Shown piece by piece: positions 17,931 to 35,140 of a stretch of DNA of 41,785 nt (position 1 is the first letter of the stretch; the number at the start of each line of letters is the position of its first letter). The notes under the pieces are model-generated. The model made no database searches, had not been told where the DNA came from, and was given only the letters and a program-made list of their open reading frames with translations. The position numbers and the translations under genes were made by a program. The stretch is from contig JAFUKH010000027.1 in NCBI GenBank assembly GCA_017467845.1, positions 1 through 41,785 of the forward strand, read 5' to 3'. The stretch comes from Lachnospiraceae bacterium (GTDB taxonomy: Bacteria > Bacillota > Clostridia > Lachnospirales > Lachnospiraceae).

Positions 17931-19712
17931 ATGAAATTGAGAAAAATAAAAGATGAAATGACTGTCAAAACTATAGATGGTGCAATACAGCTTAATAATA
18001 AGTTCATGATTAGAATTATGATTGGTCTGATTGTCTTTTCTATATGCTGTCTGATGCTTCTCGGAATGTTTGCGATATGGGTAAAGGACGCCTCCAACAG
18101 TGCAATTAATATTGAAGTAGCAACCGGAGTTCAGAGTGATTGGACCAATGATATTATTATTGATTTAGTGAGTGGTAACCCTATTGATGTAGAGCTGGAT
18201 TCCCAAAAGTGTGCATTTGCGCAGATGAGAGAGGAATTAGAAGGCGGGTTGGGTATCAAGAGTGGATACACGGAGGTACAGGCTGCTTATGATGAAGCGA
18301 TGGCACTTCACGAAGAATTACACAAATTAGCACAGCAGGCAAAGAACACCAGTCCGGAAGATGCAACGGAGATGGTAAATCTTCTGACCAATACATATAT
18401 GGAGTTTTCTTCCAAAATGAGCATTGTTTCTGATTATTATATAATGAGACAGGATGCAAATTATGATTGGTATGTATTTGTAACCAATGCCAATATCATT
18501 ATTATTATTATTTTAGCTGTTGTTGCTTCTAAGTTAATCCGCAGAGTGTCCAAGAATCTTTCGCAGACGATTGCGGAGCCTATCAATGCTGTTGCGGATT
18601 GGGCTACCGATTTGGCAATGGGTTCTGATGAACTGAATTTTGAGAATACTCATACTGATCTGGAAGAAATCAGTCAGATGATTGAAGCTTTTGAAGCTAT
18701 GGCAAAGAATATTCAGGAGAATGTTCACGTAGTACAGCGAGTTGCAGAAGGTGATATGACGGCCTTCGTTAATATTCGTTCTTCAAAGGATAGTCTCTCT
18801 AAGAATCTTTACAAGATGGTTCAGACCAACGATCTGATGTTTAACGAGATCACTCAGATTGCTCAGGAGGTTGCTTACGGTGCAGATGATATCGCCAATG
18901 CAAGTAACTCTCTGGCACAGAGCTGTACCAATCAGGTACACAGTATTGCAGATTTCAAGATTGCGGTAGAGGAGACTGCAAAGCTTCTTAATGAGAACGT
19001 AGAGCTTATTGCTAAGTCCAAGAATCTCTCCGGTGAAATTAAGCAGGAGGTTGCATTAAGTAATGAGAAGATGCAGCAGCTCTTAAAAGCGATGGAGGAT
19101 ATTACACAATCTTCCGATAAGATTTTCGCAGTAATTAAGACCATCGAAGATATTGCAAGCCAGACCAATCTTCTTGCACTGAATGCTTCCATTGAGGCAG
19201 CAAGAGCAGGTGAATTGGGTAAGGGATTTGCAGTAGTTGCAGGTGAAGTAGGAAACCTTGCAGCACAGAGTGCGAAGGCAGTAGTAGAGAGTAGACAGCT
19301 GATTGAAGATACCATCCAGAAAGCAGCTATCGGTAATAAGATTACCAATGAGACCAGCGATACCTTTAAGAAAATCGTAGAGAGTATTGATGAGATTTAT
19401 GTATGTAATGATGAGATGACGGATGCAGGAAATCGTCAGAAGGAGCAGCTTGGTGTTATCGAAACTGATATTCAGGCAATCTCTGATGCTGTAGATTCCA
19501 ATGCAGCAATCAGTGAAGAAACTGCTGCATCTTGCGACTTATTAAATAGTAGTGCGGACAGCTTACGTGCAGCCATGAGTAAGTTTAATCTTCGTAAGAG
19601 AGAGCCGGGTAAGGCTTACATTCCACCTGAGAAACAGGGCGATGAAGAATTCAAGAAGCTTGCACAGCATAACTACGATGAAGCTGTAAAAGAAGGCAAA
19701 GTTCATTACTAA
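17931..19712 (+). CDS. Methyl-accepting chemotaxis protein
   Basis: Transmembrane chemoreceptor (593 aa) that would control CheA. Helix 1 is at about residues 27-52, an extracellular ligand domain of about 130 residues follows, helix 2 is at about 181-203, then HAMP (about 203-260) and a cytoplasmic coiled-coil signalling domain. The hairpin tip is recognisable at about 405-450: [20 protein letters not shown] and [13 protein letters not shown]. At the usual EVR-LA position Gly replaces Arg, a small departure from consensus. Strong AGGAAGGGAG site 11 bp before the ATG. No flagellar or che gene is nearby. The extracellular domain is not recognisable to a ligand class from sequence alone. Confidence 0.94.
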
Positions 19713-19717
19713 AACAA

Positions 19718-19887
19718 AACGGACCGTTACCCTCCGGGTAGCGGTCTTTCTTTGGCTCCACCACAAGTTTCCCTCTGTACACAACGCTTTTGAGATACAT
19801 ACCCACCGACCGACAGGAGACCACCTCCTTTTGGGGACGCTTTTGAAAAACTACGTAGAAATCTCCAAAGGCATATGTTGCGTTCCG
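19718..19887 (-). ncRNA. Candidate small RNA, left palindrome arm
   Basis: Read outward from the centre on the minus strand, this arm has a weak promoter-like pair (CTGTTT 19911-19916, 17 bp, CATAAA 19888-19893; an alternative TATACT lies a little upstream). It contains a small AGGAG/CTCCT hairpin within the conserved 28-nt block and ends in the hairpin at 19722-19746 followed by CGTTTTGTTTT, which can terminate in this direction. CCTTTGG near the 5' end can pair with CCAAAG near the 3' end to close the RNA. Its relation to the right arm supports a functional RNA, but transcription is not shown. Confidence 0.35.
19722..19752 (+). terminator. Bidirectional terminator after the chemoreceptor gene
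   Basis: An 11-bp stem GACCGTTACCC with GGGTAGCGGTC (one G-U) and a 3-nt loop, followed by TTTCTTT on the plus strand and by CGTTTTGTTTT on the minus strand. It begins 10 bp after the chemoreceptor stop. Confidence 0.85.
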
Positions 19888-20151
19888 TTTATGTCTTTTC
19901 ACCTTTCGACAAACAGGAGTATATGTCCGTGTATTGGAGACGAGAAAAATTTTCTAGCATTTCTAGGCGCGCACGTTCGCAAAGTCTGATTACATGTGAC
20001 CGAGCCCAGCTCCGTTTCACTGCGGTGGTTCTCGGTCACATGATTTTGCTCACCGCACGTGCCAAGAACTGCACGAAAATTTTTCAAAGTCATCCAATTA
20101 CACGAACATATACTCCTTGTTTGCTCGAAATCTGAAAAGATATAAATAATC

Positions 20152-20326
20152 ATAGAACGCAACGTGCCTTTGTGAGATTTAAGTAGTTTTTCAGCAGCTT
20201 CCCAAGAGGAGGTGGTCTCCTGTCGGTCGGTGGGGCGTGACGTATCGAAAACATTGTGTATAGAGGGGAGCTTGGGCCAGAGCCAAAGAAAGACCGTCGC
20301 GAAAATGCGACGGTCCGTTTGTTATT
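20152..20326 (+). ncRNA. Candidate small RNA, right palindrome arm
   Basis: Mirror copy of the left-arm candidate, transcribed outward on the plus strand. The promoter-like pair is better: TTGTTT (20117-20122), 18 bp, TATAAA (20141-20146). The conserved 28-nt block (20207-20234) with its AGGAG/CTCCT hairpin lies mid-RNA. AGCTTCCC near 20196 can pair with GGGGAGCT near 20265 with one G-U pair. A 9-bp GC-rich hairpin (20292-20315) followed by CGTTTGTTATT would end it, running into the 3' end of the opposing exporter gene. Length of about 175 nt is in the range of regulatory RNAs such as 6S, which is only a hypothesis here. Confidence 0.4.
20285..20315 (-). terminator. Bidirectional terminator after the exporter operon
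   Basis: A perfect 9-bp stem GACCGTCGC/GCGACGGTC (20292-20300 with 20307-20315) with TTTCTTT following on the minus strand, directly after the exporter stop. Its plus-strand side also ends in a T-rich tail. Confidence 0.85.
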
Positions 20327-22103
20327 ATAGTGATTGTGCCATGTAGAGGTTATAGTAGGCACCTTTCTTTTCAAAGAGTTCTCTTGCGGTACCTTGTTCT
20401 AAGATACCGCCTTCATCGATTACGAAGATGCGGTCAGCTTTCTGAATGGTACTTAAGCGGTGAGCAATTACGAAGGAGGTACGTCCCTGTAGTAAGGTTT
20501 CAATACCTTTCTGGACTAAGAGCTCCGTCTGGGTATCAATGCTGGAGGTTGCCTCATCTAAGATGAGGATGCGTGGCATGGATACGAAGGTTCTTGCAAA
20601 GGCAAGGAGCTGCTTTTGACCGATGGAGAGACCGCCGCCTCGCTCACTGAGCTCGGTGTCGTAGCCTTTTTCCAGCTTCATAATAAAGTCGTGGGCATTT
20701 ACGGCCTTGGCTGCTGCAATGATTTCCTCATCGGTTGCGTCCAGCTTACCATAGCGGATATTGTCCTTTACAGTTCCGGAGAACAGGAAATTATCCTGCG
20801 TCATAATACCCATCTGGCTGCGGAGAGAGTGGATGGTGATATCTTTTACATCATGTCCGTCAATTTTTACGCTGCCTTTCGTAGTGTCGTAGAAACGGCT
20901 GATCAAGTTCACGATGGTGGTCTTACCTGCGCCGGTAGGTCCTACGAGTGCAATAGTTTCACCGGGCTTAATCTCAAAGCTTACATCCTCTAATACCTTT
21001 ACATCCGGGGCATCAGAGTAAGCGAAGCTTACGTTTTCAAAACTTACAGCACCTTTAATAGGTGGAAGAACAGTAGCATCACTATCATCTGTAATCTCAG
21101 AAGGGGTATCTAGGATTTCAAATACACGTTCTGCTGCAGCGATATTAGTAATCAGCTGATTGTAGAAGCTGCTTAGGTTAGAAATCGGCTGCCAGAACAT
21201 GTTAATGTATGTTCCGAAAGCAAGGAGAGTACCGATAGATACAGTGTCCACTCCAAGCACTACGATGCCCACATAGTAAAGCATTACAGAGCCGATCCCC
21301 CAGCAGATATCAATGATGGAGTTAAAGGCATCGTTCATGCGCACCGCATCTTTAAAGGCTTCCCGGTGCTCCTTTACCAGAGTATCAAAGGTTTCCTCAG
21401 ATTCTTTCTGAGCATTGAAGCTCTGGATAATACGCATTCCGGCAATATTTTCATGAAGAAAAGCATTTAAGTTAGCACTTTTCTTACGGAAGATTAGCCA
21501 GCGTTTGTGAGAATACTTCTGGATGATAAACATACCAATCATCAGAAGCGGGGTAGAGCACAGAGCGGCTAATGTAAGAAGCGGATTTTTAATGACCATG
21601 ATTACCACAACGGCAGTAATGGTAATAAAGTCCGGAATTAAGGTGGTAACACTGTTACCCAGCACATCCTTTAGGGAGTTGATATCTCCCATGATACGGG
21701 AGAGAATCTTACCGGTAGGACGTGAGTCAAAAAAGTGAAAATCCAAGGTTTGGATGTGGGTGTACAGCTCCAGACGGATGGTAACCAAAATGCGGTGACA
21801 AAGCTTGTTCATGATGTACATTCGAAGCTTTATCAGAAGTACCATAATAATGTTCAGTACCGCCGCAAAACAGACGATTTTCACAAGTCCCGAAAAGTTG
21901 CCCTTTCCGATATAATTGTCAATGGCTTCTTCGATGATTAAGGGATTCATAAGGCTGACAGCCACACAGAAGCCCATGATTAACAGCACCAAAAAAATTT
22001 CTTTTTTATATATAAGCAGATAGGAGAAGAGGCGAAGCAGCGTTTTTACTTTCCCTTTTTCTCCGCCTGTCTTCTCGTCATCCTTATACGAGTTGAATGC
22101 CAT
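20325..22103 (-). CDS. Heterodimeric ABC exporter half-transporter (BmrD/LmrD-like)
   Basis: Fused membrane domain and ATPase of an exporter (592 aa). The membrane part has six helices within about residues 20-330. The nucleotide-binding domain has Walker A GPTGAGKTT, Walker B ILILDEATSS with the catalytic Glu, and the switch His in VIAHRLS. Its signature is LSIGQ, not LSGGQ. It is encoded 17 bp after the 578-aa half, with GGAAGGAGGT before the ATG. A changed signature here and a Walker B Asp in the partner together define one degenerate ATP site, the pattern of BmrCD and TM287/288 heterodimers. Substrate probably drugs or peptides; not determinable here. Confidence 0.93.
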   Translation of the reverse strand: MAFNSYKDDEKTGGEKGKVKTLLRLFSYLLIYKKEIFLVLLIMGFCVAVSLMNPLIIEEAIDNYIGKGNFSGLVKIVCFAAVLNIIMVLLIKLRMYIMNKLCHRILVTIRLELYTHIQTLDFHFFDSRPTGKILSRIMGDINSLKDVLGNSVTTLIPDFITITAVVVIMVIKNPLLTLAALCSTPLLMIGMFIIQKYSHKRWLIFRKKSANLNAFLHENIAGMRIIQSFNAQKESEETFDTLVKEHREAFKDAVRMNDAFNSIIDICWGIGSVMLYYVGIVVLGVDTVSIGTLLAFGTYINMFWQPISNLSSFYNQLITNIAAAERVFEILDTPSEITDDSDATVLPPIKGAVSFENVSFAYSDAPDVKVLEDVSFEIKPGETIALVGPTGAGKTTIVNLISRFYDTTKGSVKIDGHDVKDITIHSLRSQMGIMTQDNFLFSGTVKDNIRYGKLDATDEEIIAAAKAVNAHDFIMKLEKGYDTELSERGGGLSIGQKQLLAFARTFVSMPRILILDEATSSIDTQTELLVQKGIETLLQGRTSFVIAHRLSTIQKADRIFVIDEGGILEQGTARELFEKKGAYYNLYMAQSL

Positions 22104-22120: not shown

Positions 22121-23857
22121 TTAGGTGATATCCTCAGTGCCCTGGATAAAGGCACCGTATTGAGCCATATACGTTTCGTAGTATAAGCCCTTTTCCTTTA
22201 ATAAAGTCTCATGGGTACCGCGCTCTGCGATTTCACCGTCTTTTAAGAAGATGATTTCATCCGCATGACGAACGGCACTGACACGGTGACCAATAATAAT
22301 CTTGGTAGTACCCTGCAGAGAATTCAAAGTTTCCTGAATTTCCTTCTCTGTCTCCATATCCAGAGCGGAAGTGGAATCATCCATAATTAATATGGGATTT
22401 CCTTTCGAAAGAGCACGTGCAATACTGATACGCTGCTTCTGACCACCGGAAAGACCAACGCCTCGTTCACCGATAACGGTATCATAGCCGCTTTCCAGCT
22501 TCTCAATAAAGGAGCCTGCCTGAGCTCTGTAGGAAGCTGTCTTCACCATTTCGTCAGTAATAGTGTCAGCCTTGCCCAGCTTAATGTTATCTTTAATAGT
22601 ATCCGAAAAAAGGAATACATCCTGCATAACCACTGAGATATTGCCTCGCAGCTGCTCAAAGGATAAATCTTTAATATTCACATCATCCATAAGAATTTCA
22701 CCTTCATTACAATCATAGAGTCTCTGTAATAAATGGATAATGGACGACTTACCGGAACCGGTAGCACCCATGATGCCAAGGGTCTTGCCGGGTTCTACGG
22801 TAAAGCTGATATCCTTTAAAATCCGGCTGTTACTGCGCTCAAAATCTACGTTCTTAAAGGTAATCTTACCCTTCACATCATTGATGACAGTGGGATGCGC
22901 TTTTTCCTTAATGTCTGCGGTTTCCTTATAAATCTTCTTAATTTTCTTATTGGAAGCCACAGCAGAGGAGAAGCTGTTGGTAAGCCAGCCCAACATTTCC
23001 ATAGGCCATACGATGTTCATGGAATACTGAATGAAGGCACCAAGATCACCAAGTGTCATCTCGCTTTGCAGAACCAAATAGCCGCCGCAAAGAAGCATAA
23101 CCAGCGGCAGAAGTTTGGTTACCAGCGTAAAATAGGGATGATACTTTACAAACATGCGGGATTGCTGCATGTTTAGTTCAAAGTATCTTTCGTTGTGGGA
23201 TAAGAACTTCTGAATCTCATGCTTTTCTCTGGCGAAGGCCTTTACGGTACGCACACCTCCTAAGTTCTCTTCACAGACCGTGTTGAGCTTTGCATTTTCT
23301 TCACTGATTTCCTCATAAATCTTATCCAGCTTCTTTTCAAGGAAAATTGCCAGCATACCGCAGAAGGCCATAACCACAAGTGGAATCAGTGCCAGTTTCC
23401 AGCTTAAGGTAAACATACAAAATAGTACTAGGGAAACGTGAATAACTACCTCAATTAATAGCATTCCAACGAATCCGATAGCATCCCAGATGCGGTCAAT
23501 ATCGTCCTTCACCCTCGCCATAAGTTCGCCGGTATTGTTGCGGTCGAAGAATTCTGCGGAAAGTCCCTGAATATGTGCAAAAATATCCTTTCGCATATTT
23601 CCCGCAATCTTTGCAGCTGTAACGTCGAAAGTATATTCTTTCACATACATAAAAATCATACGGCCTACACCTACTAAAAGAATTCCGCCCAGTAAGTAGG
23701 GGAGTATGGTAAGATTTCTCTGGCCGATGACATCGTCAATAATTCGCTTTGTGAGCTGGGGCGACAGCATATCCAGAGAAGTGGATATTACAAGTGCCAT
23801 GACTGCAATAAAATAGGCACCCTTATGCTCCCAGATATGAGTTCTAATTTTCTTCAT
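22121..23857 (-). CDS. Heterodimeric ABC exporter half-transporter (BmrC/LmrC-like, degenerate site)
   Basis: First gene of the exporter operon (578 aa): six-helix membrane domain, then an ATPase with Walker A GATGSGKSS, signature LSGGQKQR and Walker B ILIMDDSTSALD. The residue after the Walker B Asp is Asp instead of the catalytic Glu, the hallmark of the degenerate half of heterodimeric exporters. AAGGAGGTATGAT precedes the start. Expression is probably controlled by the leader ORF and attenuator at 23906-24067, as for bmrCD in Bacillus, where translation-inhibiting antibiotics induce the exporter. The exporter class is firm; the drug link is inference. Confidence 0.93.
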   Translation of the reverse strand: MKKIRTHIWEHKGAYFIAVMALVISTSLDMLSPQLTKRIIDDVIGQRNLTILPYLLGGILLVGVGRMIFMYVKEYTFDVTAAKIAGNMRKDIFAHIQGLSAEFFDRNNTGELMARVKDDIDRIWDAIGFVGMLLIEVVIHVSLVLFCMFTLSWKLALIPLVVMAFCGMLAIFLEKKLDKIYEEISEENAKLNTVCEENLGGVRTVKAFAREKHEIQKFLSHNERYFELNMQQSRMFVKYHPYFTLVTKLLPLVMLLCGGYLVLQSEMTLGDLGAFIQYSMNIVWPMEMLGWLTNSFSSAVASNKKIKKIYKETADIKEKAHPTVINDVKGKITFKNVDFERSNSRILKDISFTVEPGKTLGIMGATGSGKSSIIHLLQRLYDCNEGEILMDDVNIKDLSFEQLRGNISVVMQDVFLFSDTIKDNIKLGKADTITDEMVKTASYRAQAGSFIEKLESGYDTVIGERGVGLSGGQKQRISIARALSKGNPILIMDDSTSALDMETEKEIQETLNSLQGTTKIIIGHRVSAVRHADEIIFLKDGEIAERGTHETLLKEKGLYYETYMAQYGAFIQGTEDIT

Positions 23858-23905
23858 ATCATACCTCCTTGTCTTTCAAACCCTCAAAAGATGCATATAC
23901 AGACG

Positions 23906-24144: not shown

Positions 24145-24173
24145 AGATTACGCCTAATCTTTTTGAATGTCAA
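24145..24173 (-). promoter_or_regulatory. Sigma-A promoter of the leader/exporter operon
   Basis: Perfect TTGACA (minus strand, 24173-24168), 17-bp spacer, TAATCT (24150-24145). Transcription would start near 24138, giving an untranslated stretch of about 70 nt before the leader ORF. Confidence 0.8.
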
Positions 24174-24254
24174 GGAGGTATTTTATAAAAAATTACATTT
24201 TTTTTCATAGAATGATGGTGTAAAATAAAAAATAGTTTTATTTGAGGAGACAAT

Positions 24255-34619: not shown

Positions 34620-34956
34620 GGGGTAGTCAAGGTTTCGACAGGGGTCTTGCAGCTGGAGAAGCGAGTCGCATGCAATGCGTTAAATGGCAAAATTAAAATT
34701 AAACGCTGAAGATAATTTAGCATACGCTGCCTAGTTGCAGCAGTCTGACCTAGTGCACCTACACATTAGGACCCAGGCTTCGACTATGTAGGAAACGACA
34801 CCGGCAAAGCTTTGAGCCGGTGGGCGTATTATGAAGCTACTGAAGCGGCAAGGGTGTTAATCCCCGTGTCGTAGAGGGAATGTCAATTGATTAACTACAC
34901 TCGTAGAAGTACAGGGAATGGGCTTTTGGACACGGGTTCGACTCCCGTCTACTCCA
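34620..34956 (+). ncRNA. ssrA: tmRNA
   Basis: Transfer-messenger RNA for ribosome rescue. GGGGTAG at the 5' end pairs with CTACTCC at the 3' end as the acceptor stem, and GGGTTCGACTCCC forms the T arm. CCA is not encoded. The resume codon GCA is at 34687 and the tag reads AKLKLNAEDNLAYAA, ending at TAG 34732-34734. The Ala-Ala terminus is the usual proteolysis signal. Ends were set by the acceptor pairing; the exact processing sites are inferred. Confidence 0.97.
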
Positions 34957-34977
34957 TTCAAAGAAAAACTAAAAAAG

Positions 34978-35091
34978 GTCTTTGGGGCAGGGTGCAAATC
35001 CCGACCGATGGTATAGTCCATGACTCTCCGGAAACGGAGACTGATCTGGTGAGATTCCAGAACCGACGGTATAGTCCGGATGGGAAAAGAC
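34978..35091 (+). promoter_or_regulatory. FMN riboswitch (RFN element)
   Basis: Aptamer that senses flavin mononucleotide. The conserved cores GGGGCAGGGTGCAAATCCCG, ACCGATGGTATAGTCCATGAC, CTGGTGAGATTCCAGAACCG and ACGGTATAGTCCGGATGGG are present in order, and P1 closes by GTCTTT with AAAGAC. It lies upstream of ribU, a known RFN target. The element begins only 21 bp after the tmRNA 3' end, with no obvious separate promoter between them. Confidence 0.97.
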
Positions 35092-35140
35092 GTTTTTATA
35101 TTTTTAGGGGGTGCCCTATCTTTTGGTGACCTATAAAAAT

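What the first reader, a model, noticed from the sequence alone, without database searches (positions are those of the whole stretch)
19713..20323. 610-bp imperfect palindrome filling a convergent gap: two mirrored, diverged arms
The arms share many blocks at mirrored positions, including an identical 28-nt block and a perfect 12-bp centre, while the sequence between blocks has diverged. This pattern suggests selection on specific segments, not a fresh duplication. It replaces what should be a short terminator region between two convergent genes. Possible meanings: a pair of paralogous small RNAs, a foldback element, or a cruciform-forming boundary.
Basis: seen in the sequence. Interest (0 to 1): 0.85.

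Follow-up and report, generated by a model that had tools for sequence, protein, structure and literature searches.

The report
Giant mirrored DNA hairpins ending genes
The odd mirrored stretch is one of about thirty related giant hairpins scattered through this gut bacterium's genome, found at the ends of genes, whose two halves tend to change together over evolution in a way that suggests the DNA copies one half onto the other.

Summary
Window 19713-20324 is an imperfect palindrome (fold z -28.5 and -33.2). It is one copy of a dispersed non-coding family: 35 places, 30-35 sites, in its own genome. Copies are about 0.2-0.9 kb foldbacks with one or two homologous ~160-bp units per arm. The strands of a unit carry different motifs ('A', 'B'), and types alternate in 9 of 9 elements with all four half-sites. 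In 16 of 16 elements tested the nearest opposite arm is the own partner, though in 6 a same-type arm of another copy is nearer still. Of 84 inner pairs, 36 show two-sided changes; G-T mismatches barely exceed A-C, so DNA-level arm copying fits better than selection on one RNA. All 36 copies examined face a gene's 3' end; 23 lie between convergent genes, none between divergent ones. Matches occur in 3 of 101 genus genomes and in one genome of another genus. No partner transposase or plasmid or phage copy was found, by limited searches. Best reading: a lineage-restricted foldback repeat family at gene ends; function is inferred, not shown.

The parts
19713..20324 (.). whole foldback element between the stop codons of two convergent genes
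19721..19747 (+). terminator-like hairpin for the + gene, inside the left end of the palindrome
   Evidence: mirrored by 20291-20316
20291..20316 (-). terminator-like hairpin for the - gene, mirrored; outer stem and CTTTCTTTG tail shared with the left one, inner stem different
   Evidence: by eye a similar terminator follows the matching gene in G098, where no such palindrome was found
19742..19793 (.). outer arm block, left (partner 20245-20296)
20245..20296 (.). outer arm block, right
19802..19835 (.). near-perfect arm block, left (contains the 28-nt identical block)
20201..20234 (.). near-perfect arm block, right
19847..20192 (+). conserved unit (B arm ... A arm) shared with the rest of the family
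   Evidence: model R1 match, 121 bits, E 1e-26; R1 was built without this copy
19853..19869 (+). B half-site (ACGTAGAAATCTCCAAA)
20169..20186 (-). A half-site (CTACTTAAATCTCACAAA on the - strand)
20147..20154 (-). TATGATTA stretch on the A strand with no counterpart on the B strand
19924..19929 (+). tip motif, B side (TGTCCG); C19927 stands opposite A20105
20103..20108 (+). tip motif, A side (CGAACA; TGTTCG on the - strand), seen in most aligned G000, G098 and G008 copies and in G237
19993..20042. central perfect 12-bp stem with 26-nt loop; the inner unit of this copy (346 nt) is longer than those of the 12 others (180-217 nt)

Best explanation
The stretch is one member of a lineage-restricted, non-coding foldback repeat family. 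Each copy is a long DNA palindrome built from one or two homologous ~160-bp units per arm, with strand-specific motifs, lodged at gene 3' ends. SHOWN: the family, its architecture, arm partnership with two-sided changes, the 3'-end location and the narrow distribution in the genomes searched. INFERRED: (1) copies spread in the past as non-autonomous elements, or by recombination among copies, and survive where they break nothing; some end in terminator-like hairpins or T-rich tails, so they can serve as bidirectional transcription ends. (2) Arms stay complementary chiefly because replication through the hairpin occasionally copies one arm onto the other (template switching or intra-palindrome conversion). 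(3) Motifs that stay unequal between strands (A versus B) are kept by selection, probably as a recognition site for a transposase, recombinase or other DNA-binding protein not yet identified.
For: Dispersed copies: 35 places in the own genome, 10 at contig ends; the complete copies examined are palindromes. Architecture: strand types alternate in 9 of 9 elements with all four half-sites; of the other 5 of 14 examined, 3 have three sites and are compatible, 2 have one unit. Arms: own partner ranks first among 16 opposite arms in 16 of 16 elements. 36 of 84 inner pairs have two-sided changes, against a shuffled mean of 16.8 and 5-12 when partners are slid by 1-3 columns. Of 89 Watson-Crick double-changed cells 42 cannot pass through G-U; G-U cells are 27, A-C 11, other mismatches 18, of 917. 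Over 28 whole elements G-T 275, A-C 220. Template switching as a source of paired changes: PMC8794818 (outline with abstract, and passages). Location: 16 of 25 own copies and 7 of 11 relatives' copies in convergent gaps, the rest co-directional, none divergent; 22 other neighbouring pairs in the same loci: 0 convergent, 18 co-directional, 4 divergent. PMC1590033 (passages) gives convergent spaces as 8-12% of intergenic space in practically all species it tested. Outward T-rich tails (6 or more T in 8) at 25 of 58 ends, 6 of 58 read inward, 27% in shuffles.
Against: In 6 of the 16 elements a same-type arm of another copy is nearer than the own partner, and 2 tie, so arm partnership is incomplete. 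Arms differ at about 15% of aligned positions, so copying is not efficient. G-T exceeds A-C mildly, and selection on both strands could also give two-sided changes. No clean empty site was found, and no partner transposase, though the only test was a pattern search in a genome 86% complete. T-tails are absent at most ends. ORF calls were simple and some element bounds were set by hand. No expression data.
Confidence: 0.55

Rival explanations
1. A structured RNA: the hairpin is transcribed (as an sRNA or as the shared 3' end of both neighbouring mRNAs) and selection on RNA folding keeps the arms paired.
For: Strong covariation with recurring internal loops; the 36 copies examined face gene 3' ends; mild G-T over A-C excess, 275 to 220, and 27 to 11 in the inner units on a structure predicted from one strand.
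Against: A-C mismatches are nearly as many as G-T over whole elements; 42 of 89 double changes cannot go through G-U. No Rfam match of the element at gathering. One promoter-like site in 19500-20500 against 1.2 in shuffles, and in the window copy a terminator-like hairpin on each side precedes the core.
Confidence: 0.2
2. A chromosomal DNA site (cruciform or hairpin) bound by a host protein, with a cellular role such as organising the nucleoid or insulating convergent transcription; the unequal A/B motifs mark strand polarity.
For: Seven columns in which A and B arms carry different majority letters, each in at least 75% of the 16 G000/G098 elements; tip motif recurs in G008 and G237; by eye the two-unit alternation recurs in G008 (G8C9); at the one orthologous site seen, the element end is 95.1% identical over 103 positions, the flank 85.3% over 1334.
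Against: 98 of 101 genus genomes gave no match, so it is hardly a general cellular need; no candidate protein known.
Confidence: 0.15
3. Ordinary MITEs of a recent or extinct insertion sequence, with the long hairpin as neutral cargo.
For: A subset shares TIR-like ends near GGG(A/G)CTGTTGCAAAATA, and a ~100-bp form with such ends but no unit exists.
Against: Other copies have different ends (C11 and C65 terminator-type; several G008 copies and C73b another type). No two of the 10 TIR-pattern hits share a contig, so no flanked transposase was seen (one mismatch allowed, so diverged ends are missed). Neutral cargo does not predict own-arm partnership together with recurring A/B motifs.
Confidence: 0.1

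Closest known systems
Bacterial MITEs (QMITE, Chunjie, SPRITE, BOX, RUP)
   Same: dispersed, non-coding, intergenic, hairpin-forming; SPRITE is terminator-like (PMC10969869, passages)
   Different: that review gives 50-500 bp; here up to about 0.9 kb, with two-unit arms, unequal strand motifs and partnered arms; partner transposase and target duplication not established
REP/BIME and REPIN with RAYT transposases
   Same: palindromic intergenic repeats; in BIMEs units lie in alternating orientations (abstract of PMC2817692 in a listing)
   Different: REPs are 20-40 bp (abstract of PMC3733652 in a listing); units here are ~160 bp inside one hairpin; RAYT was not searched for
Eukaryotic foldback (FB/TU) elements (recalled, no call)
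   Same: long inverted repeats made of repeated sub-units
   Different: bacterial, no gene in the middle seen, strand types alternate
Integron attC sites (recalled, no call)
   Same: imperfect palindrome with unequal strands and structure kept better than sequence
   Different: far longer, not in cassette arrays; no integrase identified (not searched for)
Bidirectional intrinsic terminators
   Same: stem with outward T-rich tails between convergent genes at some ends
   Different: arms up to several hundred bp with recurring internal motifs; most ends lack a clear T tract

Membership tests
MITE | terminal inverted repeats shared across copies | tested here: inconclusive
   shared by one subset; other copies have other ends
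MITE | target-site duplication | tested here: inconclusive
   looked at by eye for C1 and C72 only, none seen; no clean empty site
MITE | partner transposase with the same ends | tested here: inconclusive
   10 TIR-pattern hits, no two on one contig; the pattern misses diverged ends and the genome is 86% complete; no transposase family was searched
REP/REPIN | 20-40 bp palindromes | tested here: not met
   copies are about 0.2-0.9 kb
REP/REPIN | RAYT transposase | not tested
   no search run
Intrinsic terminator | GC stem followed by T-rich tail | tested here: inconclusive
   window copy: met at both ends; across 29 elements 25 of 58 ends T-rich against 27% in shuffles
Structured RNA family | known Rfam family | tested here: not met
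   no element match at gathering; two sub-threshold matches in 19600-20450
Structured RNA family | covariation with strand-specific G-U tolerance | tested here: inconclusive
   covariation strong, G-U preference weak
Structured RNA family | transcript | not testable with these tools
   no RNA-seq
attC-like recombination site | cognate recombinase acting on a folded single strand | not testable with these tools
   no candidate enzyme in hand
Phage- or plasmid-borne element | copies on mobile replicons | tested here: not met
   one copy (C68 core) had no match in plasmids or phages; 10 viral contigs held a half-site pattern, best model match E 0.32

The most novel reading that the evidence does not exclude
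A new class of mobile or chromosomal structured-DNA element: long foldbacks whose folded form, read through unequal strand motifs repeated every ~160 bp in alternating polarity, is recognised by an unknown enzyme (attC-like in logic, not in kin), while replication-driven arm copying keeps the fold intact as the sequence drifts.
Probability: 0.2. Interest if true: 0.85.

Novelty: new variant of a known kind. Interest (0 to 1): 0.6.

Why it matters
It offers about 30 replicate long palindromes in one bacterial genome whose arms change together with few G-U intermediates. That is a natural test bed for the question whether hairpins are kept by compensatory selection or by template switching. It also warns that strong covariation in a bacterial intergenic alignment need not mean a functional RNA.

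Tried and rejected
Rfam at gathering and at relaxed thresholds: no element match at gathering. Small-RNA pair: not supported, as above. Fresh inverted duplication: rejected, because own-arm partnership coexists with recurring A/B differences and with relatives in other genomes. Assembly artefact: unlikely, as arms are only about 75% alike and the architecture recurs in separate genomes (G000, G098, G008, and a one-unit form in G237). C2 site: I first thought the palindrome ran into both coding ends; partly similar letters stand at those gene ends in G098, which has no palindrome there, so I dropped it. Empty sites: the C2 flanks lie 9 kb apart in G098 and the neighbour of the window's ABC gene differs there, so no insertion footprint could be read; the C68 query found no pair of flanks. 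G098:C27 looks mis-binned; it entered a count only in the totals. An earlier count said alternation in 12 of 12; the count with all four sites is 9 of 9. One search counted 16 elements; 10 G008 rows were aligned but not counted, and other G000 copies were not included. One search covers 25 of the 35 own places; the 10 at contig ends were left out.

Full report
OBSERVATION. Window 19713-20324 lies between convergent ORFs 17931-19712 (+) and 20325-22103 (-) and is an imperfect palindrome as described. Both strands fold far better than shuffles (z -28.5 and -33.2, 20 shuffles each). Terminator-like hairpins sit inside both outer ends: four terminator-like sites in 19500-20500 against 0.9 expected.

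A DISPERSED FAMILY. A search of the own genome with the element found relatives on many contigs. The complete ones examined are themselves palindromes. Model R1, built from 11 inner units that exclude the window copy, gave 55 hits at E up to 1, both strands included; 150 of 993 first-look candidates were scored. An end-sequence search added more. I count 35 places, 10 at contig ends where two half elements may be one, so 30-35 sites. The window copy scores 121 bits, E 1e-26.

ARCHITECTURE. Arms carry homologous half-sites: B (GCGTAGAAATTTCCAAA, then ...CGTTC) and A (CTGCTTAAATTTCACAAA, then ...CGTTCTATGATTA). Of 14 elements examined, nine have four half-sites and all nine alternate; C41, C74 and C40 have three, compatible with truncation or deletion; C11 (window) and C65 have a single unit. 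Neighbouring half-sites lie about 150-170 bp apart. Beyond the core, ends differ by copy: TIR-like ends in one subset, terminator-like ends in C11, C65, C88, C83 and C2, and another end type in several G008 copies and C73b (by eye). C11 and C65 share both ends (42 of 44 and 40 of 41 positions), with one two-sided change in the outer terminator stem.

ARMS CHANGE TOGETHER. Seven columns with different majority letters in A and B arms (each in at least 75%) were removed; in the rest, the own partner is the nearest opposite arm in 16 of 16 elements. Against a simple reading, a same-type arm of another copy is nearer than the own partner in 6 of 16 and ties in 2, so partnership is strong but incomplete. 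In A1, 36 of 84 pairs show two-sided changes, and none of 500 shuffles reached any of the five measures; partners slid by 1-3 columns give 5-12. Shuffles do not remove relatedness. Of 917 cells, 89 are Watson-Crick double changes, 42 of which cannot pass through G-U; G-U cells are 27, A-C 11, other mismatches 18. That structure was predicted on one strand and leans to G-U. Self-alignments of 28 whole elements give G-T 275, A-C 220 and transversion-type 728; the last figure includes the unequal motifs. In A2, which adds G098 and G008, 29 of 45 predicted pairs show two-sided changes. Template switching is known to make such paired changes (PMC8794818: outline with abstract, and passages). Copies also look mosaic: C19 and C72 are 96.6% identical in the tip but 83-88% beside it, whereas C72 and C78b are 84.3% in the tip and 90-93% beside it, which suggests exchange between copies.

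LOCATION. With simple ORF calls and some hand-set bounds, 16 of 25 own-genome copies and 7 of 11 relatives' copies lie between convergent genes. The other 13 are co-directional and none is divergent, so each faces at least one gene 3' end. The 22 other neighbouring pairs in the same loci give 0 convergent, 18 co-directional and 4 divergent. T-rich tails outward occur at 25 of 58 ends, 6 of 58 inward, 27% in shuffles.

DISTRIBUTION AND AGE. R1 matched 3 of 101 genus genomes (G000, G098, G008). R2, built from G000, G098 and G008 units, found one further carrier, G237 in another genus, with one match, among 397 family genomes, and only the own genome among 392 order genomes. These large scans use stricter filters and score few candidates per genome, so weak or further copies can be missed. 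G008 copies keep the tip and TATGATTA motifs despite strong divergence. One site, G000:C79 and G098:C71, carries the element end at the same position in both genomes; it is 95.1% identical over 103 positions while the flank is 85.3% over 1334, so that copy predates the split. At the C2 and window sites no such palindrome was seen in G098, but gene order differs there. Plasmids and phages gave no match to one copy, and the 10 viral contigs with a half-site pattern gave no model match better than E 0.32.

MECHANISM AND NOVELTY. I take it as a foldback repeat family living at gene ends, with arm complementarity kept chiefly by DNA copying and unequal motifs kept by selection for an unknown binder. 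Spread by transposition is inferred. The TIR-like pattern gave 10 hits in the own genome, 8 at unit-bearing copies, 1 at the ~100-bp form, 1 elsewhere, no two on one contig; transposase families were not searched. Literature searches listed no description of this family; they cover an open-access library only. I saw the outline with abstract and passages of PMC8794818, passages of PMC10969869 and PMC1590033, and listings of the rest. The names FB/TU and attC are recalled.

Noticed in passing
L057 (G098:C27, 3272-bp contig): One half 95.8% identical to the G000:C72 side, the other 99.5% to G000:C10, while other G098 genes compared are 84-86%: likely a mis-binned contig with a recombinant or chimeric join inside the element.
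   Followed up: partly
L115 (G000:C10) and L007 (G000:C40): Elements in which one arm seems shortened by roughly 150 bp between homologous units, as if by recombination, deletion or misassembly.
   Followed up: no
L106 about 1730-1832 (G000:C63): A ~100-bp palindrome with the same TIR-like ends but no unit, in a convergent gap; either ancestral mini-form or deletion product. The other 100 genus genomes gave no match at E 1e-4.
   Followed up: partly
window 34620-34959 and 34974-35095: tmRNA gene closely followed by an FMN riboswitch.
   Followed up: no
window 23850-23880 / 24162-24192: 31-nt inverted repeat (81%) in the gap between divergent ORFs, each arm holding an AGGAGG-like stretch.
   Followed up: no
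G000 and G098 gene order around elements: At the two sites checked in G098 (window site and C2) the neighbours are rearranged, so copies may promote rearrangements.
   Followed up: partly
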